The notes under the pieces are model-generated. The model saw only the letters and a program-made list of their open reading frames with translations, made no database searches and was not told the origin of the DNA. DNA of 64,000 nucleotides. Origin: Dyella subtropica (GTDB lineage: Bacteria > Pseudomonadota > Gammaproteobacteria > Xanthomonadales > Rhodanobacteraceae). The translations under genes were made by a program, and so were the position numbers. The DNA lies in assembly GCF_026283965.1 (NCBI RefSeq), contig NZ_JAPDPD010000001.1, forward strand, positions 434,001-498,000, written 5' to 3'. Position 1 is the stretch's first letter; each line of letters opens with the position of its first letter. Shown here in pieces: positions 10,868 to 57,494 of the stretch.

Positions 10868-11220
<353 letters not shown>

Positions 11221-11337: not shown

Positions 11338-11796
11338 ATGGCGAGGGTTCGTCTGGCGGGGCAAGGGGACGCTGGCATGCTTACGGAGCTGCGTTGCACC
11401 TTTCTTGAAGAGATGGGACAGCAGCTGTCGGATGGATTCGCCGACCGCTTGCGCGCGTGGATCGAAGAGGCGATGGCGGAAGGGCGCTTGCAAGCCTGGC
11501 TGGCCGAGCTGGACGGGCGAGTGATCGGCAGTGCGGCGGTGAACCCGTATCCGCACATGCCTTCGGCGAGTTACCCGAACGGAAAGGGTTGGTATCTGCT
11601 GAATGTCTACGTGAAACCGCCGTATCGACTCGCGGGCGTGGGTGCCGGCTTGCTCGCGGCGATCGGGTCCGCTGCGCGGGAGCAGGGTGTGGATGCACTG
11701 ACCCTGCATGCCACGGTGAGCGCTCGCCGCTTGTATGAGCGCTGCGGCTTCAAGCCGGCGACGGATGCGATGAGCATGTCGCTAGGGACCCTCTGA
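11338..11796 (+). CDS. GNAT-family N-acetyltransferase (152 aa)
   Basis: A single acetyl-CoA-binding GNAT domain. Motif A reads LLNVYVKPPYRLAGVGAGLL, with the Gly-rich pyrophosphate loop, and motif B reads LTLHATVSARRLYERCGFKP. An open frame extends upstream, but that part overlaps the tmRNA on the other strand. The ATG at 11338, preceded by AAGGGGTGGGG, is the credible start and gives a normal GNAT length. The last five codons and the stop form part of the left arm of a long inverted repeat (11781-12078). The substrate is unknown. Confidence 0.88.
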   Translation: MARVRLAGQGDAGMLTELRCTFLEEMGQQLSDGFADRLRAWIEEAMAEGRLQAWLAELDGRVIGSAAVNPYPHMPSASYPNGKGWYLLNVYVKPPYRLAGVGAGLLAAIGSAAREQGVDALTLHATVSARRLYERCGFKPATDAMSMSLGTL

Positions 11797-12078
11797 TCTA
11801 TTCCACGTAGGCGTCACCGTTGCTGTTTGCGCGCAGATCGCCGTTGCGTTGCCGACGGCAGACTGGACGTCTGTCTAGACAGCGCGGCGGTGAGCTGCGC
11901 GCAAACAGCAACGGCCCAACCTTCTGTTTTATCAATGACGGGGTGATCACCAGAAAGCGCGCTGCGGGCGCCGCGCGGCTTGACCTGACGGCCAGTCAGG
12001 CACTGCGCCACGCGGCGCCCGCAGCGCGCTTTCTGGTGATCATGCCGCCTGCGCGGAATAGATCAGAGGGTCCCTAGC
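11781..12078 (-). repeat. Nested inverted-repeat element, copy A (reverse orientation)
   Basis: Three long stems are visible. The outer arms are 11781-11813 with 12046-12078 (33 bp, 2 mismatches; 24 bp perfect at the outer end). The inner stem 11944-11975 with 12011-12042 is 32 bp, perfect. A side stem 11817-11836 with 11895-11914 is 20 bp, perfect. The core hairpin inside the inner stem (CCTGAC, GTCAGG and the flanking GGCGCAG/CAAGCCGCG) matches copies B and C in reverse. The element fills the gap between the convergent GNAT and smpB genes and includes the GNAT stop codon. Confidence 0.85.
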
Positions 12079-12088
12079 CTGAGTCCAC

Positions 12089-12580
12089 TCACGCGCTGCG
12101 GTTGTGCGCACGCATGGTGCGCTGCTTCTCGCGCTGCCAGTCGCGTTCCTTTTCGGTGTCGCGCTTGTCGTGGGCTTGTTTGCCGCGGGCGAGTCCGATT
12201 TCGACCTTGACCTTGTTGCCCTTCCAGTACATCGCGATGGGCACCATGGTGTAGCCCTTGCGCTCGACGGCGCCGATCAGCTGGTCGATCTCCTGCTTGT
12301 GCAGCAGCAGCTTGCGCGTGCGGCGGTCTTCTGCGATGACATGCGTGGACGCGCTGATGAGCGGTGGAATGGAGGTGCCGACGAGGAAGATCTCGCCCTT
12401 CAGCACAATGGCGTAACCGTCGCCGAAGTTGATCCGCCCGGCGCGGAGAGCCTTCAGCTCCCAGCCCTGTAAGGCGATGCCGGCTTCGTAGCGCTGGTCG
12501 ATGTGGTACTCGTGGCGCGCGCGCTTGTTGAGCGCAATGGTGCCGCTGCCCTTGTTGTCTTTGTCCTTAGCCTTGGCCAT
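12089..12580 (-). CDS. smpB: SsrA-binding protein SmpB (163 aa)
   Basis: SmpB binds the tRNA-like part of tmRNA and brings it to stalled ribosomes. The family core is present: NKRARHEYHIDQRYEAGIAL, GWELKALRAG and ARGKQAHDKRDTEKERDW, with the basic C-terminal tail that enters the mRNA channel (QREKQRTMRAHNRSA). The length is normal. The gene is divergent from ratA, as in many gammaproteobacteria, and close to ssrA. The distal stop lies just beyond repeat element A. Confidence 0.97.
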   Translation of the reverse strand: MAKAKDKDNKGSGTIALNKRARHEYHIDQRYEAGIALQGWELKALRAGRINFGDGYAIVLKGEIFLVGTSIPPLISASTHVIAEDRRTRKLLLHKQEIDQLIGAVERKGYTMVPIAMYWKGNKVKVEIGLARGKQAHDKRDTEKERDWQREKQRTMRAHNRSA

Positions 12581-16309: not shown

Positions 16310-16388
16310 GCGCCCGTGGGGGAATCTCTAAGCATCGGGAGCCGGGAGGCCGTGGGCAACGCCCCGGCACTGCTATACAGTGCGTGGC

Positions 16389-17033
16389 ATGTACAGCATT
16401 GTCCTGGTCGACGACCACGCCATAGTCCGCGAGGGGTTCAAGCGGCTGATCGAAATGGAGCCTGACCTCGAGGTGGTGGCGGAGTGTCGCAGCGCCGACG
16501 ATGCGGTGGAGGCGGTGACCCAGCAGCGCCCGCACCTGGTGGCCTTGGATCTCTCGCTACCTGATGGCAGCGGCCTACCGCTGATCGAGCATTTGCGCAG
16601 TGTGGCTGATGAAACACGCATCGTCGTGCTCAGCATGCATGACGGCGAACCCTATGTTTCCGAAGCTTTGCGGCGTGGCGCCAGCGGTTACGTCACCAAA
16701 GGCGTGGCGCCTGAGGAGCTGGTCGCTGGACTGCGCGCCGTGATGCTGGGCGAGTGCTTCCTCAGCTCCGATTTGCGCCAGCGCCGCGCCGAGCGACCCG
16801 GCAACGTGCTGGACCCGATCCACCGCCTAACCACGCGTGAGCGCGAGGTATTCCTGCTGCTGGCGGTTGGTCGCGCACCCAAGCAAGTGGCTGCGGAACT
16901 CGGTATCGGACAGAAGACGGTGTACATCCACCGGGCCAGCCTGATGGGCAAGCTCGGCGCCGGTTCGGAACTGGATCTCTATCGCATGGCCAGCGAGCGC
17001 GGCCTGTTGCCGTCGCGCGACAACAAAAACTGA
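16389..17033 (+). CDS. LuxR/NarL-type response regulator (214 aa)
   Basis: The receiver domain begins YSIVLVDDHAIVREGFKRLI, with the phosphorylated Asp in VALDLSLPDGSG. The C-terminal GerE/LuxR helix-turn-helix reads LTTREREVFLLLAVGRAPKQ, then AAELGIGQKTVYIHRASLMG. I chose the ATG at 16389 over the GTG at 16380. It is divergent from the MASE1 kinase with 79 bp between them, probably sharing an autoregulated promoter region. Repeat element B starts right after the stop codon. Confidence 0.94.
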   Translation: MYSIVLVDDHAIVREGFKRLIEMEPDLEVVAECRSADDAVEAVTQQRPHLVALDLSLPDGSGLPLIEHLRSVADETRIVVLSMHDGEPYVSEALRRGASGYVTKGVAPEELVAGLRAVMLGECFLSSDLRQRRAERPGNVLDPIHRLTTREREVFLLLAVGRAPKQVAAELGIGQKTVYIHRASLMGKLGAGSELDLYRMASERGLLPSRDNKN

Positions 17034-17034
17034 T

Positions 17035-17309
17035 CTAAGAGCCTGTTCAATATCTCTTCGTGGCCCGCGTTGCTTGTCAGTGGGCGTCAGGTGATGGGGC
17101 GTGGCGCAGCGCCTGGCTGGCTGCCAGGCCAAGCCGCGCACCGCCGCCTGGCGCCCACTGACAAGCAACCCTACGGGCCGGGTCTGTTTGCACGCATGCC
17201 CGCGTCATCACTCAGTTGTGTACGGACCGTACACGCCTTCGTTCTTCCTTGGCCTGCGCGCAAACAGCTCCCGGCGCGGGCCACGAAGAGATATTGAACA
17301 GGCTCTAAG
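17035..17309 (+). repeat. Nested inverted-repeat element, copy B
   Basis: The outer arms 17035-17069 and 17275-17309 pair over 35 bp with one mismatch. The inner stem 17069-17086 with 17152-17169 is 18 bp, perfect. A core stem GCGTGGC/GCCGCGC (17099-17105, 17133-17139) is capped by CCTGGC-TGGCT-GCCAGG (17112-17128). The 3' half has the stem CTGTTTGC/GCAAACAG enclosing GTGTACGG-A-CCGTACAC (17218-17234). It exactly fills the gap between the stop codons of the response regulator and recN, which converge. Confidence 0.88.
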
Positions 17310-17312
17310 TGA

Positions 17313-18989
17313 TCACGCCGTCTGCGCGCGGTCCAGCATCTGCTTGGCGTGGGCGCGGGTTTCGCGGGTGATTTCCAGGCCGCCCAGCATGCGCGCCAAC
17401 TCGTCGCGACGACCGCTGGCGTCGAGTTTCTCGATGCGGGTCTGCGTGGATTCGCCGTCGCTGTGCTTGCTGACGCGAAGGTGGGCGTGGCCTTGCGCAG
17501 CGACCTGGGGCAAGTGAGTGACGCACAAGACCTGACGCTGCCCACCGAGCGAGCGTAGTTTTTGTCCGACCACTTCGGCCACCGCGCCGCCAATGCCGGT
17601 ATCGACTTCATCGAAAACCATGCTGCCGACGGTGTCCTTGCCCAGCGTGGCCACTTCGATGGCCAGACTGATGCGGGCCAGCTCGCCGCCCGAAGCGACT
17701 TTGCGCAAAGGGCGCGGCGGTTGGCCGGGATTAGCGCTGACCAGCAGCTCGCAACGTTCGCGGCCTTGCGGGTCGGGTTCGTCGCTGCCTACGGGTTCCA
17801 GTTCGATCTTCAATAGACCGCCGGCCATGCCGAGCTCGGCCATCAAGGCGCTGACTTCCTTGCCCAATTTTCCTGCGGCGGCTTCGCGCGCTTTGCTCAA
17901 TCTGCCCGCGGCGGTGGCGTAGTCGCGCTGAAGCTGATCGCGTTGTGCGGCCAGTCGCTCCAGGGCGTCGCCGGCATCTTCCAACTCGGTCAGTTCGGCA
18001 CGCAGCGTCACCGCTTTCTCATGCAGCTCGGCCGCGGGTGTGCGGTGCTTGCGCGAGAGCTCATGCAAGTGGGTCAGATGGGTGTCGACCTCGGTGTAGC
18101 GCTCGGGGTCGAGGTCGACATCCTGCGCGTAGCGGCCAAGGCCATCGGCGGCTTCGCCGAGTTGGATGGTGGCGTTGTCGAGCAGCTCCAACAGAGGTGC
18201 CAGCCGGTCGTCCAAGGCGGCGAGCTTGTCCAGTTCGGCGTGTGCGCGGCCCAGGGAGCGACGCAAGGCCAGCTCACTATCGCCGTCGAGCAGTTCGGCG
18301 ACCCCAGCGGCGCCCTCGACCAGCCGGCCCGCATTGGCCAAACGCTTATGGCTGGCTTCAAGCTCGATCAGTTCGGCCGGGGGCAGCGCCCATTGTTCCA
18401 GCTCGCCCGCTTCGTGACGCAGCAGTTCAAGGCGCTGTTCGCGATCGTCGCCGCCGTTGAGCTTGCGGATGCGCGCGCCGATCTCGCGCCATTGCTGGGC
18501 ACTGTCCTGCACTTGGGCCAGCAGCGCCTCATGACCGGCATAGGCATCGAGCAAGGACATTTGATGGCTGCGCGAGAGCAGGGCCTGATGTTCGTGCTGG
18601 CCGTGGATCTCGACCAGCAGGGTAGCCAGCTCGCCGAGTTGGCTGGCGCTGGCCGGACGACCGTTGATCCAGGCGCGCGAGCTGCCTTCGGTGCGGATTA
18701 CGCGGCGCAGGCGGCAGCTGCCATCCTCATCGTCCAATTCTTCGCGTTGTAGCCAGTCGCGGGCTTCGGCCAGGTCCGACAAGTCGAACTCCGCGGCCAG
18801 TTCCGCGCGATCGCTGCCGGCCCGCACCATGCCGCTGTCGGCACGTCCGCCGGCCAGCAGCATCAGGGCATCGACCAGCAGCGACTTGCCGGCGCCGGTC
18901 TCGCCGCTGACGACGGTGAGGCCCGGGCCGAAAGCGATCTCGGCTTCTTCGACGACGGCGAAATGGCGAACGTAGAGCGAGGTAAGCAT
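17313..18989 (-). CDS. recN: DNA repair protein RecN (558 aa)
   Basis: An SMC-like ATPase of double-strand-break repair. The N-terminus reads MLTSLYVRHFAVVEEAEIAF, followed by Walker A GETGAGKS. A long Glu/Arg/Leu coiled-coil middle follows, with QHEHQALLSRSHQ near residue 135, and the C-terminal signature VASGGELARISLA precedes Walker B MVFDEVDTGIGG. The open frame continues 266 codons upstream of 18989, but that part overlaps hrcA and its leader. The ATG at 18989 gives the family length. It is divergent from hrcA; no LexA box was obvious. Confidence 0.96.
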   Translation of the reverse strand: MLTSLYVRHFAVVEEAEIAFGPGLTVVSGETGAGKSLLVDALMLLAGGRADSGMVRAGSDRAELAAEFDLSDLAEARDWLQREELDDEDGSCRLRRVIRTEGSSRAWINGRPASASQLGELATLLVEIHGQHEHQALLSRSHQMSLLDAYAGHEALLAQVQDSAQQWREIGARIRKLNGGDDREQRLELLRHEAGELEQWALPPAELIELEASHKRLANAGRLVEGAAGVAELLDGDSELALRRSLGRAHAELDKLAALDDRLAPLLELLDNATIQLGEAADGLGRYAQDVDLDPERYTEVDTHLTHLHELSRKHRTPAAELHEKAVTLRAELTELEDAGDALERLAAQRDQLQRDYATAAGRLSKAREAAAGKLGKEVSALMAELGMAGGLLKIELEPVGSDEPDPQGRERCELLVSANPGQPPRPLRKVASGGELARISLAIEVATLGKDTVGSMVFDEVDTGIGGAVAEVVGQKLRSLGGQRQVLCVTHLPQVAAQGHAHLRVSKHSDGESTQTRIEKLDASGRRDELARMLGGLEITRETRAHAKQMLDRAQTA

Positions 18990-19120
18990 GGGTGGCGGCG
19001 ATAGAAAGTCGGGGGATTGTAAGGGCAGAAACGGGCGGGTAGGAGTCGGGCGGAGGCGAACTGCCCCATGGGTCATGGGAATGCCCCCTGCGTCACGGTT
19101 CTCCCTTTGGTTTCCGTATT

Positions 19121-19149
19121 CTTGCAAACTACCGGGATAGACCTTATTT
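19121..19149 (+). promoter_or_regulatory. Possible heat-shock promoter of hrcA
   Basis: CTTGCA (19121-19126) and CCTTATTT (19142-19149), 15 bp apart, resemble sigma-32 elements (CTTGAA and CCCCATTT). No CIRCE element (TTAGCACTC-N9-GAGTGCTAA) is present upstream of hrcA, so HrcA itself probably acts elsewhere. Confidence 0.35.
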
Positions 19150-19178
19150 CTTTTCCGTCTCACGGATTGCCACAGCGC

Positions 19179-20240
19179 ATGCCTCATCCTCTCGGCCATG
19201 ACATCGACGCGCGCGCTCGCCGCCTGCTGCGCACGCTGATTGCTCAGTACCTGGCCGACGGCGAACCGGTCGGTTCCCGCACGCTGTCGCGCTCCTCCGG
19301 CCTCGACGTCAGCCCGGCCACCATCCGCAACATCATGGCGGACCTGGAGGAGGCGGGCCTGGTGGCTTCGCCGCATACCTCGGCGGGCCGCGTGCCCACG
19401 CCGCGTGGTCTGCGCCTGTTCGTCGATAGCCTGATCGAACTGCAGCCACTGCCCCACGAGGACATGGCGCGCCTGCAGCGCGAACTCCCGCCGGGTCCCA
19501 CCACCACCCGCGACTTGCTGGGCAACGTCTCTACGCTGCTGTCGGCGATGACTCATTTCGCCGGGGTGGTTACCGTGCCGCGGCAGGTGGATTTCCCGCT
19601 GCGCCATATCGATTTCGTGCCACTTCCCGACGCACAGGTGCTGGTGATCCTGGTGTTCTCCGATAACCAGGTGCAGAACCGCGTAGTACAGCTGGGTCGG
19701 CCGCTGGAGGTTCGTGAGCTGGAGCAGGCCGCCAACTATCTCAACGCCCATTTCACCGGTCTGCGTCTGGACGATATTCGCGCGCACCTGCTGCGCGAAT
19801 TGCGCGAGGCCAGCAGCGAACTCAATCAGCTGATGTCCAGCGCGGTGGAGCTGGCAGCCGCCTCGTTCGCTCCGCAGAGCGAGAGCGACGATGTGCTGGT
19901 CAGCGGCCAGACCAACCTGATGGGCTATTCGGAGCTGGCCAATCTGGAGCGCCTGCGTGAGCTGTTCGAAGCTTTCCAGAAGAAAAACGAGCTGCTGCAG
20001 CTGATGGAGGTCTGCGCCCGGGCGCCCGGTGTGCGGCTATTTATTGGCGAGGAATCGGGTTTTGCCGCGCTGGATGGCTGCAGCGTGGTCACGGCCAGCT
20101 ACGGCGCGCAGGGGCGCGTGCTGGGGGCGGTCGGGGTGATTGGCCCCACCCGCATGGCCTACGAACGTGTGATCCCGGTGGTACAGGCTACGGCCGGATT
20201 GCTCAGCGACGCCTTGAATCGCGCCGCCACGGCCTTATAA
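19179..20240 (+). CDS. hrcA: Heat-inducible transcription repressor HrcA (353 aa)
   Basis: A repressor of heat-shock genes that binds CIRCE and responds to GroEL. The winged helix is clear: RARRLLRTLIAQYLADGEPV, GSRTLSRSSGLDVSPATIRN, then LEEAGLVASPHTSAGRVPT. The GAF-like central region and ends (GVIGPTRMAYERVIPVVQ) match the family. I chose the ATG at 19179 (MPHPLGHDIDARA), not the upstream start, because it gives the normal length. It is the first gene of hrcA-grpE-dnaK-dnaJ. Confidence 0.95.
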   Translation: MPHPLGHDIDARARRLLRTLIAQYLADGEPVGSRTLSRSSGLDVSPATIRNIMADLEEAGLVASPHTSAGRVPTPRGLRLFVDSLIELQPLPHEDMARLQRELPPGPTTTRDLLGNVSTLLSAMTHFAGVVTVPRQVDFPLRHIDFVPLPDAQVLVILVFSDNQVQNRVVQLGRPLEVRELEQAANYLNAHFTGLRLDDIRAHLLRELREASSELNQLMSSAVELAAASFAPQSESDDVLVSGQTNLMGYSELANLERLRELFEAFQKKNELLQLMEVCARAPGVRLFIGEESGFAALDGCSVVTASYGAQGRVLGAVGVIGPTRMAYERVIPVVQATAGLLSDALNRAATAL

Positions 20241-23460: not shown

Positions 23461-24594
23461 ATGAGCAAGCGTGACTACTACGAAGTCCTTGGTGTCGAGC
23501 GCACCGTCACCGAGGCTGAACTGAAGAAGTCCTTCCGCCGTCTGGCGATGAAGTTCCACCCGGACCGTTGCCCGGACGATCCGCATGCGCAGGAGAAATT
23601 CAAGGAGGCCAAGGAGGCCTACGAGGTGCTCTCCGACGCGCAGAAGCGCGCGATGTATGACCAGCATGGCCATGCCGCGTTCGAACACGGCATGGGCGGC
23701 AATGGCCGTGGTGGCGCCGGGTTTGGCGATATGGGCGACATCTTCGGCGATATTTTCGGCGACATCTTCGGCATGGGCGGCGGCGGTCGCGGGCGCGCAC
23801 GTCGCGGGGCGGATCTTCGCTACCTGATGGAGCTCGACCTCGAAGAAGCCGTGTTCGGCATCGAGAAGAAGATCGAGGTGCCGACCCAGGTCAATTGCCA
23901 TCATTGCAACGGCAGCGGCTCGGAGGACGGCAAGGTCGTCCAGTGCAAGACCTGCCACGGCCATGGCCGCGTGCGGATGCAGAACGGTATCTTCTCGATC
24001 CAGCAGGCTTGCCCGCATTGCGGCGGCAGCGGCCAGGCGATCGAGAAGCCGTGCAAACAGTGCCGCGGCGAAGGACGTCTGGAAGAAAATCGCACGCTGT
24101 CCGTGCGTATTCCGGCCGGTGTGGATAACGGCGATCGCATCCGCTTGACCGGGCAGGGCGAGGCCGGCCCGGCTGGCGCCGAATCCGGCGACCTGTATGT
24201 GGAAGTGCATGTGCGCGAGCACGCTATCTTTCAGCGCCAGGGCAACGATCTCTACTGCGAGCTGCCGATCCGCTTCGCGCAGGCCGCACTGGGCGCGGAA
24301 CTTGGCGTGCCGACACTGGAGGGTGAAGTGCCGATCCAGATTCCGGCCGAAACACAGACCGGGCAGCAATTCCGTCTGCGTGGCCGTGGCGTGAAATCGG
24401 TACGCAACGGTCGTGCTGGCGATCTGATTTGCCACGTGGTGGTGGAAACGCCGGTACGCCTGACCAAGCAGCAGCGCGAACTGCTTGAACAGCTGGAGGC
24501 GACTTTCAGCGAAAGTGATGGGGATAGACACACACCGCGCGCGAAGACCTGGGTGGATGGCGTAAAACAGTTTTGGTCTCGCGTCACTTCGTAA
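23461..24594 (+). CDS. dnaJ: Chaperone DnaJ (377 aa)
   Basis: The J domain carries HPD in [16 protein letters not shown] Gly/Phe-rich linker ([14 protein letters not shown]) follows, then four zinc repeats: [32 protein letters not shown]. The C-terminal substrate domains are normal, and it stimulates DnaK ATPase. The start has no good SD (upstream CAGTCTTTA), which may reflect the insertion of the decayed gene just upstream. Translation coupling to dnaK is not possible at this distance. Confidence 0.97.
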
Positions 24595-24647
24595 TCGCCA
24601 TGGGTTAATCGCCATGGGTTAATCGCCCAGGGTTAATCGCCATGGGC
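24592..24647 (+). repeat. Four tandem 14-bp repeats at the dnaJ stop codon
   Basis: The unit TAATCGCCATGGGT occurs four times in a row: copies 1 and 2 are identical, copy 3 has CCAGGG for CATGGG, and copy 4 ends in C. The TAA of the first unit is the dnaJ stop codon. Copy number may vary between strains. Confidence 0.85.
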
Positions 24648-25517: not shown

Positions 25518-25577
25518 CCGGCACGTCATGACGGCCCCTTGCTTGCTGCGCTAGATCGACCTCGCTACCATGACCCC

Positions 25578-25745
25578 GTTGTCATTGGGGAGTAGCCATC
25601 CTCACCCCCTGGAGGCCGTTCCGGTCTTCATATCCAGAGGAATCCGCGTCAACAGACTTGAAGCTGCGGCTTCATGGCGCGGATGGCGTCGCGATCCGAT
25701 ACCTTCGGCATCGCGCCCGCCCGGCGAGACCTTTGGCCACGACGT
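25578..25745 (+). promoter_or_regulatory. yybP-ykoY (Mn2+) riboswitch upstream of the antiporter gene
   Basis: Both conserved halves of the yybP-ykoY aptamer are present in order: TTGGGGAGTAGCC (about 25583-25595), then GTCAACAGACTTG (about 25649-25661), a variable stem (GAAGCTGCGGCTTC), and GGCGAGACCTTTGGCC (about 25722-25737). These match the E. coli alx and mntP aptamers as I recall them. The expression platform would lie in the remaining 70 bp before the ATG at 25815. Established knowledge of the class: it senses Mn2+ and usually turns on Mn or related ion exporters. Confidence 0.88.
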
Positions 25746-25814
25746 GCTCACCCGGCCGGGCGAGGTGCGTCGTTGCGCCAATGGTTTTCCGTTCGCCCGG
25801 CCGTGGAATCACAC

Positions 25815-30211: not shown

Positions 30212-30907
30212 TCAGTCTTGGTGCGACGCATTACGGTCGCGGTCCGCGCCCAGCTTGCGGTCCAGCGCGCCGAACAACTTCTTGAACGTGCGGGCGAATT
30301 TGCCACGCTTGGTCTTGCGGAGCTTCTCTTCTTCGCTGGTCAGCCAAGCCACCTGGATCACCCGACGCTCGCCCTCATAGGGCAGGTGGCCATGGAAGGA
30401 GTTGTCGCAACGCTTGAATACGGCGAACTCGCCGTACAAGGGCTTGAGTTCCGGGGCGATGACATCGTCGATGTTGTCGATGCTGCCCAAGAAGCGCAGG
30501 CAGCCGTCACTGGTGTCCGGCCACTGGGTGTTGAGGTAGAGGAGGGCGGTGGCGACTTTGGATTTGCTGTCCGTATGGATGGTGCCGTGGCGCCTGTTGA
30601 GCGAACGGCAGAGCGTGACCAGCGTGGGGTATTGGCCAAGGTTCTCGATGTTCAGACGCTTGCCGATGGCGCTGGCGAATTCCGGCGTGATCAGGCGCTG
30701 CACCAGGGCATTGACCGTAGGCCCGCAGTCGCTGGGGTCATAGGGGAAGAAGCCGGCGCTGGCGTAGCGAGGGAAGTCCTGCTCCAGGTCGCTGCGGAAC
30801 TCGTCTGGCAACTGGCCGTGCGCGATCATGAGCGGGAACGGTTCGTGCCGTATATCCGTGTCCGGGCGGTCAAAACGGGCAGGATCGAGCAGAACGGCGG
30901 TGCTCAT
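30212..30907 (-). CDS. 2OG-Fe(II) oxygenase family protein (231 aa)
   Basis: A double-stranded beta-helix dioxygenase: iron ligands in GTIHTDSKSKVATALLYLN (His-x-Asp), the distal His in NSFHGHLPYEGERRVIQVAW, and the Arg for 2-oxoglutarate a few residues later. The C-terminus is basic (KLRKTKRGKFARTFKKLFGA) and could touch membrane or nucleic acid. The start may be 30907 or 30925. It lies 80 bp upstream of the TPR operon on the same strand and may belong to it. The substrate is unknown. Confidence 0.85.
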   Translation of the reverse strand: MSTAVLLDPARFDRPDTDIRHEPFPLMIAHGQLPDEFRSDLEQDFPRYASAGFFPYDPSDCGPTVNALVQRLITPEFASAIGKRLNIENLGQYPTLVTLCRSLNRRHGTIHTDSKSKVATALLYLNTQWPDTSDGCLRFLGSIDNIDDVIAPELKPLYGEFAVFKRCDNSFHGHLPYEGERRVIQVAWLTSEEEKLRKTKRGKFARTFKKLFGALDRKLGADRDRNASHQD

Positions 30908-30961
30908 GGGCGTGTGCATCTCCATAGAAACGGCGCGTAGTGTAACGCTTCGCCTGTCTTA

Positions 30962-31229
30962 GGAGCCTGTCCTTATCGTCCGCATAGCCCGCGTTGCTTA
31001 CCCTTGGCCGCCCGCTGGTAGGGCGTGGCGCAGTGCCTGACTGGCGGTCAGGTCAAGCCGCGCCCTGTCGGCGGGCGGCCAAGGGTAAGCAACCCTCCGG
31101 GCCGAGTCTGTTTGCCCGCATGCCGGCGTCATCACTCGGTTGTGTACGGACGTACACGCCCTCGTTCTTCCTTGCCATGCGCGCAAACAGCTCTCGGCGC
31201 GGGCCATGCAGACGATAAGGACAGGCTCC
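30962..31229 (+). repeat. Nested inverted-repeat element, copy C
   Basis: The outer arms 30962-30993 and 31198-31229 pair over 32 positions with two mismatches. The inner stem 30993-31015 with 31071-31093 is 23 bp, perfect. The core stem GGGCGTGGC/GCCGCGCCC (31021-31029, 31057-31065) is capped by CCTGAC-TGGCG-GTCAGG. The 3' half (31094-31197) is nearly identical to copy B, including CTGTTTGC/GCAAACAG and GTGTACG-GA-CGTACAC. It sits in the divergent gap between the 2OG oxygenase and carA. The rest of the gap, 31230-31386, is the carA leader. Confidence 0.88.
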
Positions 31230-31325
31230 CAACTGACACAAAGACGTGACTTTTACGCGTCATCCGGTGGACAGAAAGGCCTCTCGCACCTATCATCGCC
31301 AACCGCCCTGTGACTTTCCTCGACC

Positions 31326-31386: not shown

Positions 31387-32514
<1,128 letters not shown>

Positions 32515-36216: not shown

Positions 36217-36225
36217 TGTCTGACC

Positions 36226-36254
36226 TGTAGGAGCGCACCCTGTGCGCTCCTACA
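36226..36254. repeat. REP-like hairpin (TGTAGGAGCGCAC type) after greA
   Basis: A perfect 13-bp stem, TGTAGGAGCGCAC with GTGCGCTCCTACA and a 3-base loop, 10 bp after the greA stop. It is the same repeat sequence as at 57339-57416. Such units are dispersed in pseudomonads and xanthomonads and often end transcripts. Confidence 0.8.
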
Positions 36255-57320: not shown

Positions 57321-57338
57321 CCATGGGTATCCAAGCCC

Positions 57339-57416
57339 GTAGGAGCGCACCCTGTGCGCGATGCTCTTCGTGCGGCGCCCATCCAAGCACCCATCGCGCA
57401 CAGGGTGCGCTCCTAC
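57339..57416. repeat. Inverted pair of REP-like units
   Basis: A 24-bp unit beginning GTAGGAGCGCACC (57339-57362) and its exact inverse (57393-57416) enclose 30 bp. The same unit sequence forms the hairpin at 36226-36254. REP-type pairs in pseudomonads and xanthomonads are spread by RAYT transposases; no such gene is in the window. It lies right after the pbpC stop. Confidence 0.85.
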
Positions 57417-57494
57417 AGGCGTCGGTTTCGGGGTGTCGAAGAGCCTGCGCTATGCTTGCCCGTCTGTCCCGTGAAGCCCGCATTCGCCACCACG

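What the first reader, a model, noticed from the sequence alone, without database searches (positions are those of the whole stretch)
17035..17309. A family of nested inverted-repeat elements whose stems co-vary between copies
Seen directly: three elements (17035-17309, 30962-31229, and 11781-12078 in reverse) share one plan. Each has an outer arm of 32-35 bp, an inner stem of 18-32 bp, a conserved core hairpin (GGCGCAG ... CCTGAC/GTCAGG ... CAAGCCGCG) and a 3' side stem with CTGTTTGC/GCAAACAG. The arms differ in sequence between copies (for example AATATCTCTTCG against CTTATCGTCCGC) yet pair almost perfectly within each copy. Even the core changes compensate: CCTGGC/GCCAGG against CCTGAC/GTCAGG. 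Random drift would break such stems, so either pairing is selected (structured RNA or DNA) or the arms are regenerated by a copying mechanism. I recall no named family like this.
Basis: seen in the sequence. Interest (0 to 1): 0.88.

Follow-up and report, generated by a model that had tools for sequence, protein, structure and literature searches.

The report
Mobile hairpin elements with rewritten arms
These are copies of a small gene-less jumping DNA that folds into nested hairpins, is common in Dyella and relatives, keeps its stems paired while their letters change, and has a conserved core that occurs with different end sequences.

Summary
The three window elements belong to a large family of ~270-300 nt non-coding elements: 29 core places in this genome, many in Dyella and Rhodanobacter, core hairpins in 8 genomes of other families, and a similar element in a Xanthomonas plasmid. 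Stems covary far beyond the controls. The elements are mobile: 12 of 16 sites tested in one genome are empty in a sister species, and type-A insertion duplicates 3 bp (TNA). Some ends resemble those of IS5-family insertion sequences in related genomes; none was found in this genome. So this is a MITE family probably moved in trans. It is unusual: the interior is conserved while the ends differ, and a wobble test splits the covariation. Outer arms show no G.T excess, as expected if two matching ends are read as double-stranded DNA; the core-proximal stem of hairpin 1 shows a strong G.T excess on one strand, as for folded RNA or single-stranded DNA. At low divergence, changes in place are mostly single and uncompensated; compensated changes are commoner between copies at different sites and are not clustered, against rapid template-switch correction. 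What the core does is unknown. I found no named family.

The parts
17039..17305 (+). Element 1 (type A), between a LuxR-type response regulator gene (16380-17033, +) and recN (17313-19787, -)
   Evidence: the equivalent spacer in same-genus genome G001 has no element
17036..17038 (.). left target-site duplication TAA (inferred)
   Evidence: family consensus TNA duplication
17306..17308 (.). right target-site duplication TAA (inferred)
17039..17068 (+). left outer arm (terminal inverted repeat plus extension), pairs with 17276-17305
17276..17305 (+). right outer arm
17069..17169 (+). hairpin 1: long variable stem with conserved apical core
   Evidence: pair I7
17103..17138 (+). core of hairpin 1 (GGCGCAG...CAAGCCGCG)
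17177..17275 (+). hairpin 2 (CTGTTTGC/GCAAACAG stem, conserved GCGTCATC...CTTCCTTG top)
30963..31228 (+). Element 2 (type A), between a 2OG-Fe(II) oxygenase-like reading frame (30212-30925, -) and carA (31387-32514, +)
30993..31093 (+). hairpin 1 of element 2; core 31027-31062
31101..31198 (+). hairpin 2 of element 2
11781..12078 (-). Element 3 (type B, ends GGGACCCTCTGATC, CTAG at both ends), downstream of smpB (12089-12580, -)
11939..12047 (-). hairpin 1 of element 3; core 11974-12009
11817..11914 (-). hairpin 2 of element 3
   Evidence: pair I9

Best explanation
A family of non-autonomous transposable elements (MITEs), moved in trans by IS5-family transposases. SHOWN: many copies, clean empty sites in a sister species, a 3-bp duplication (TNA) for type A, stop codons over-represented at the target, and a conserved interior that occurs with several end types. 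SUGGESTED by sequence: some of these ends resemble the terminal repeats of IS5-family insertion sequences found in related genomes. INFERRED: two forces keep the arms paired. (1) The outermost ~20 bp of the outer arms must match each other because one transposase reads both ends as double-stranded DNA, so they change together without wobble intermediates. (2) Hairpin 1 is selected to fold as a single strand of fixed sense, RNA or lagging-strand DNA, so it changes through G.T intermediates. Elements that lose pairing multiply less; copies slowly gather unmatched changes in place.
For: Copies: 29 core places in the own genome within 3 mismatches, 0 for the reversed-pattern control; 10 of 31 relatives, own genome included; 17 of 20 genomes of one genus; 84 of 84 named stretches in Dyella, Rhodanobacter, Frateuria or a Lysobacterales MAG. 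Mobility: of 16 sites of genome G135 (of 18 fetched; L382 and L405 not put in), 12 read straight through in sister G164, 3 are interrupted (2 filled, 1 split over contigs), 1 has no match; junctions. Duplication: the 3 bases next to the ends are identical in 32 of 85 copies against 13.8 expected (best of 704 offsets and lengths tried) and in 40 of 173 against 19.8, sd 3.5, in the enlarged set. Stop codons: where the longest open frame runs in frame into the left TNA, it is a stop in 25 of 32 (63 of 167 overall); right, 14 of 34 (30 of 167). Ends: copies L323/L326 start GGGCCTGTTCACACTATCC, like the insertion sequence in L255 (GGGCCTGTTAACACTACC), whose gene matches IS5 models (NF033580 108.1 bits, cut-off 110; PF13340 above cut-off). 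L191, with a type-A interior, starts GGGCGTGTCATCAAT like the elements in L254/L257 (NF033580 above cut-off for L254). Wobble in 152 non-redundant copies: outer arms G.T 32 v A.C 41 and 36 v 28; hairpin 1 proximal 543 v 28 (125 v 23, p=4e-18, without near-fixed columns; 18 columns to 1), distal 67 v 29 (p=1e-4); hairpin 2 main stem 26 v 24. Compensated changes, as a share of compensated plus single, are commoner between copies at different sites (61 of 256, 24 disjoint pairs) than between same-site copies (9 of 95, 10 disjoint pairs; p=0.002, or 0.018 without one misaligned pair).
Against: No IS5-type transposase was found in the own genome or its 5 genus mates (PF13340 and PF01609, 0 of 6), so the partner is inferred from relatives. 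The commonest end (GAGCCTG, 116 of 184) matches the fetched insertion sequences no better than chance over its full length (12 of 19 at L255, best 14 of 19 elsewhere); only its first nine letters agree. In G009, full of copies, the DUF4096 gene (L256/L476) has end matches of 12 and 15 of 18 that are 1.8 kb apart, not a clean pair. Outer-arm pairing runs ~11 bp past the ~17-20 bp shared by insertion sequence ends and still covaries (cols 21-29). In distal hairpin 1 the G.T excess comes from few columns (5 against 6, sign p=1), and hairpin 2 away from its main stem leans the other way (G.T 16 v A.C 80; 16 v 39 without near-fixed columns). The minus strand of element 2 folds slightly better than the plus strand (-202.3 v -197.6). 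Deeper same-site pairs do show compensated changes in place (L178/L292 7, L379/L411 11, L332/L407 3). Loss of pairing with age is weak: no trend with duplication erosion (p=0.70), rho 0.18 with distance to the nearest other copy. Copies kept at one site change about 2-10 times less than neighbouring third codon positions in pairs where the frame looks right (for example 0.023 v 0.222 and 0.030 v 0.180), hinting at a host-level constraint not included here. No expression or transposition data exist here.
Confidence: 0.65

Rival explanations
1. DNA copying: replication template switching inside the palindrome copies one arm onto the other, so arms evolve in concert with no selection for structure.
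For: All four Watson-Crick pairs occur at the variable columns with few intermediates and no wobble bias in the outer stem. The mechanism is described for RNA hairpins (PMC8794818, abstract and outline seen). Pairing persists in copies with eroded duplications. Deeper same-site pairs show compensated changes.
Against: Same-site copies of related species differ mostly by single unmatched changes (13 pairs under 8% divergence, three of them from one trio and one misaligned: 83 single, 6 compensated, 4 other double). Compensated changes are not clustered into patches (23 adjacent, 24.5 expected). It does not predict the one-strand wobble excess of hairpin 1.
Confidence: 0.25
2. Structured RNA: the whole element is a selected RNA (processing site, terminator or small RNA) and covariation is classical RNA compensation.
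For: Wobble bias of hairpin 1; conserved loop and internal-loop letters across end types; co-direction with flanking genes, 38 against 22 (p=0.05), or 69 against 39 with one-sided calls added (p=0.005); low divergence of retained copies.
Against: The outer stem and the main stem of hairpin 2 show no G.T excess. 44 of 120 copies with both neighbours called lie between divergent genes (simple frame calling). The two strands fold about equally well. No Rfam family at gathering score.
Confidence: 0.2
3. An ordinary dead repeat whose arms match only because copies are young.
For: 12 of 16 sites tested in G135 are empty in G164, so many copies are recent; some copies in one genome are about 99% identical.
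Against: Copies differ from one another by more than 15% while arms still match within each copy, which youth of each insertion cannot produce.
Confidence: 0.03

Closest known systems
MITEs of bacteria (review PMC10969869: outline and passages seen)
   Same: Short, non-coding, terminal inverted repeats, target duplications, intergenic, transcripts predicted to fold; insertion sequences are given as the main source
   Different: The review calls MITEs typically AT-rich; these are GC-rich, ~270-300 nt, with two large internal hairpins, a conserved interior with differing ends, and arms that covary at nearly every position
ERIC, Correia/NEMIS, RUP, YPAL/RU-2, CIR (PMC2229807: passages and one section seen)
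   Same: Small mobile sequences with stem-loop folds; YPAL has empty-site evidence; CIR has two inverted-repeat arms joined by a linker
   Different: Other hosts, sizes, ends and duplications; stop-codon preference and end replacement not mentioned in the passages seen
IS5-family insertion sequences with DUF4096 transposase (NF033580)
   Same: Similar terminal repeats for some end types in related genomes; a 3-bp TNA duplication fits the IS1031-like group (recalled, from no call)
   Different: The element is too short to hold a transposase gene
REP/BIME palindromes (PMC3733652: listing only)
   Same: Extragenic palindromes; REP-like repeats sit in the equivalent recN-side spacer in other genera
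   Different: REPs are 20-40 bp (abstract); here there are transposon-like ends and duplications
Template-switch maintenance of hairpins (PMC8794818: abstract and outline seen)
   Same: Explains compensatory change without selection
   Different: In-place data here do not show it as the main process

Membership tests
MITE (non-autonomous DDE-type element) | Terminal inverted repeats | tested here: met
MITE (non-autonomous DDE-type element) | No transposase gene inside | tested here: met
   266-298 nt, too short for one; reading frames that overlap the elements were not tested one by one
MITE (non-autonomous DDE-type element) | Target-site duplication of fixed length | tested here: met
   3 bp: 32 of 85 identical v 13.8 expected, 40 of 173 v 19.8; read by eye as 3 bp in about half of 12 empty/filled comparisons, at least 2 unreadable. 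Type B/C looks like 4 bp, by eye only
MITE (non-autonomous DDE-type element) | Empty sites in close relatives | tested here: met
   12 of 16 sites tested; also the 17039-17305 site in G001
MITE (non-autonomous DDE-type element) | Ends match an autonomous element that can move it | tested here: inconclusive
   Some end types resemble IS5-family elements in related genomes (15 of 18 and 14 of 18), the commonest type does not over its full length; none found in the own genome
Structured non-coding RNA family | Covariation beyond controls | tested here: met
Structured non-coding RNA family | Wobble pairs tolerated on the functional strand in all helices | tested here: not met
   Only hairpin 1 shows it
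Structured non-coding RNA family | Stable transcript | not testable with these tools
   no expression data
Known Rfam family | Score above gathering threshold | tested here: not met
   whole window; 30900-31300 only: four microRNA models, all below threshold

The most novel reading that the evidence does not exclude
The element is built inside out compared with an ordinary MITE: a conserved, strand-specific folded core is the lasting unit, and it changes its terminal repeats to ride on different IS5-family transposases. The core would then have its own job in multiplication, for example folding on the lagging strand to bring the ends together or acting as an RNA, rather than being filler.
Probability: 0.33. 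Interest if true: 0.78.

Novelty: new variant of a known kind. Interest (0 to 1): 0.6.

Why it matters
Covariation is usually taken as strong evidence for a functional RNA. Here one short element carries two kinds of covariation that a simple wobble test separates, so it is a caution for RNA discovery and a natural test case for how palindromes stay paired. If the core does persist while ends are exchanged, it shows a non-coding element switching transposase hosts and makes the role of internal hairpins in MITE multiplication directly testable. It may also explain broken assemblies: many contigs of this genome end inside the elements.

Tried and rejected
Rfam at gathering score (whole window) and below it (element 2 only): four microRNA hairpin models below threshold, treated as chance.

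Search for a resident IS5-type partner: PF13340 in 3 of 19 genomes searched (G007, G009, G011) and none of the 6 of genus g1; PF01609 in 2 of 11 searched (G020, G021, other families) and none of the 6 of g1. Other transposase families were not searched.

A 5-bp duplication TGATC at 17035-17309, suggested by comparison with G001, was dropped: it rests on one palindromic site, and the many-copy tests favour 3 bp.

A small minus-strand reading frame with a ribosome-site-like AAGGAAG was noticed by eye and judged unlikely (element 1 has an extra base in that stretch; the G013 copy seems to have a stop); no call tested it.

Duplication identity as an age marker showed no trend with mismatches. Some apparent same-site pairs (L165, L140, L382/L412/L136, L408 or L402 with L409) are probably separate insertions, because offsets differ or the nearest neighbours are other copies; none is in the low-divergence counts. 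L395/L405 and L397/L405 are misaligned in the profile columns, so their counts are partly artefact. In one search several flank frames are plainly wrong (third position below first and second), so rate ratios are quoted only from pairs that look right.

The first stop-codon count (the TNA is the stop in 23 of 60 left and 10 of 45 right genes) had no control, because TNA itself supplies stops; one search gives one, and the effect is about twofold.

Of the eight genomes outside the family with a hairpin-1 match, I read the element in four (G242, G306, G274, G178). The G178 one is shorter and differently built; the script's pattern missed the other four.

PMC2267715 was searched for Xanthomonas, Xca, Xac, compensatory and MITE: no occurrence. 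One search used a wrong pattern (4 copies only) and was redone. RNA model R1 had a shifted structure and was not used; R2 was.

Full report
WHAT IS THERE. The window holds three elements. Two (17039-17305 and 30963-31228) are type A with ends GAGCCTG...CAGGCTC. One (11781-12078, minus strand) is type B with ends GGGACCCTCTGATC. Each has paired outer arms enclosing two hairpins. Hairpin 1 has a long stem of variable letters topped by a conserved core (GTGGCGCAG n GCCTGAC TGGCn GTCAGGT CAA GCCGC). Hairpin 2 has a CTGTTTGC/GCAAACAG stem and, in type A, a conserved top. Single-strand folding is far better than in shuffles. The window lies in a 4.95-Mb genome. Two of its genus mates have contig lengths equal to those of Dyella sp. 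OK004 and Dyella marensis records (G001 and G003 against L186/L194 and L147), so the host is inferred to be Dyella or close to it.

FAMILY SIZE. The own genome has 29 places matching the core within 3 mismatches and none matching the reversed pattern. BLAST with the two subtypes gives 49 and 89 matches, half-palindrome hits included. A hairpin-2 pattern found 84 stretches in a collection of one genome per species; all 84 records are named Dyella, Rhodanobacter, Frateuria or Lysobacterales MAG. Among relatives 10 of 31 genomes matched at E<=1e-20, own genome included, and 17 of 20 of the genus of G018 at E<=1e-30. A covariance model of hairpin 1 alone hit 24 of 200 genomes of the order at E<=1e-4, 8 of them outside the family (at most 24 candidates scored per genome, so copy numbers are lower bounds). 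I read four of those eight; three have the full plan and one (G178) is shorter and different. A plasmid search with the G242 element gave one record, Xanthomonas sacchari (72% over 86% of the query).

COVARIATION. On 60 copies (first 60 of 66 that passed a 15% distance filter) each of the three structures tested (outer stem, hairpin 1, hairpin 2) exceeds all 500 shuffles and all slid versions on all five measures. Variable columns carry all four Watson-Crick pairs; for example column 14/262 is CG 25, AU 18, UA 12, GC 3. Hairpin 1 of 25 copies from A- and B/C-type elements gives the same result (score 0.531 against 0.186). The structure was itself derived from such copies and relatedness is not kept by the shuffles.

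WHAT MOVES IT. Insertion sequences in related genomes end in letters close to some element ends: L255 with GGGCCTGTTAACACTACC against copies with GGGCCTGTTCACACTATCC, and L254/L257 with GGGCGTGTCATCAATT against copies in G009 and in L191. Their genes match the IS5-family model NF033580 (L254 above its cut-off; L255 at 108.1 bits against 110) and PF13340. Against this: the commonest end, GAGCCTG (116 of 184 copies), shares only its first letters with L255 and scores 12 of 19 over its length, no better than chance matches elsewhere; in G009 the resident DUF4096 gene has no clean pair of matching ends; and no PF13340 or PF01609 gene was found in the own genome or five genus mates. About five end types occur around a recognisably related interior: GAGCCTG, GGGCCTG, GGGCGTGTCATC, GGGACCC/GGATGC, and GGACCTGTTAACGC in G013 (the grouping is by eye). 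The interior outlasts the ends; whether ends are swapped by recombination or just evolve fast is not shown.

WHY THE ARMS STAY PAIRED. In RNA, G.U is tolerated on the functional strand, so G.T should exceed A.C there; double-stranded DNA recognition predicts no excess. In 152 non-redundant copies the outer arms show none (32 v 41 in columns 1-20; 36 v 28 in 21-32) and the hairpin 2 main stem none (26 v 24). The core-proximal stem of hairpin 1 shows a strong excess (543 v 28; 125 v 23 without near-fixed columns; 18 columns against 1). The distal stem shows 67 v 29, but spread over few columns (5 against 6). The rest of hairpin 2 leans the other way (16 v 80; 16 v 39 without near-fixed columns). 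I therefore read outer-arm covariation mainly as matched ends for a transposase, and hairpin 1 as a folded + strand, RNA or single-stranded DNA. Weak points: outer-arm pairing continues past the length shared by insertion-sequence ends, and in element 2 the minus strand folds slightly better than the plus strand.

IN PLACE OR BETWEEN SITES. Same-site copies in different species under 8% divergence (13 pairs, three of them from one trio) differ by 83 single, 6 compensated and 4 other double changes (one pair misaligned). In disjoint pairs of 3-10% divergence, compensated changes are 61 of 256 between sites (24 pairs) and 9 of 95 in place (10 pairs), other double changes left out (p=0.002; 0.018 without the misaligned pair). 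Compensated changes are not adjacent more often than expected (23 v 24.5). This disfavours rapid template-switch correction and fits selection among multiplying copies. But deeper same-site pairs do carry compensated changes (L178/L292 7, L379/L411 11, L332/L407 3), so compensation also happens in place, slowly. Mismatches rise only weakly with distance from the nearest other copy (rho 0.18, p=0.016) and not with erosion of the duplication. Copies kept in place seem to change about 2-10 times less than neighbouring third codon positions (pairs with a plausible frame only), which may mean some are useful to the host; that rests on few pairs.

KNOWN OR NEW. It passes the MITE criteria tested, except that the match to a mobilising partner is inconclusive. 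ERIC, NEMIS, RUP, YPAL and CIR are similar in kind (PMC2229807, passages and one section; PMC10969869, outline and passages). My paper searches listed no described family of this sort in Dyella, Rhodanobacter or Xanthomonas; the library lacks most subscription journals, and the listings were capped. Verdict: a new variant of a known kind, with an unusually conserved and strand-biased core.

Noticed in passing
L191:4446-4710 and L190:2805-3067: Elements with a type-A interior but different ends (GGGCGTGTCATCAAT and GGCGTGTTGGCACT) with matching complementary ends; possible direct cases of end exchange.
   Followed up: partly
own-genome contig ends, e.g. C1, C2, C4, C5, C8, C12, C15, C18, C20, C24, C25, C29: Many contigs of this genome stop inside these elements, so the assembly seems to break at the hairpins.
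   Followed up: no
L236-L253 (spacer equivalent to 17034-17312): The same response-regulator/recN spacer carries other REP-like palindromes in several other genomes: possibly a hotspot for palindromes.
   Followed up: partly
36224-36247 and 57335-57420: GTAGGAGCGCACCCTGTGCGC repeats, one as an inverted pair, resembling GTAG-type REP elements (name recalled).
   Followed up: no
10868-11220 (-) and 12089-12580 (-): tmRNA and smpB lie close together with element 3 between them.
   Followed up: no
24592-24646: Short tandem repeat of a 14-base unit (TAATCGCCATGGGT) (family D5).
   Followed up: no
25575-25749 (+): Manganese riboswitch (RF00080).
   Followed up: no
L451, L468-L475 (genome G009): At least 22 hairpin-1 copies with few distinct scores in one complete chromosome: probably a recently expanded subfamily, good for a transposition test.
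   Followed up: partly
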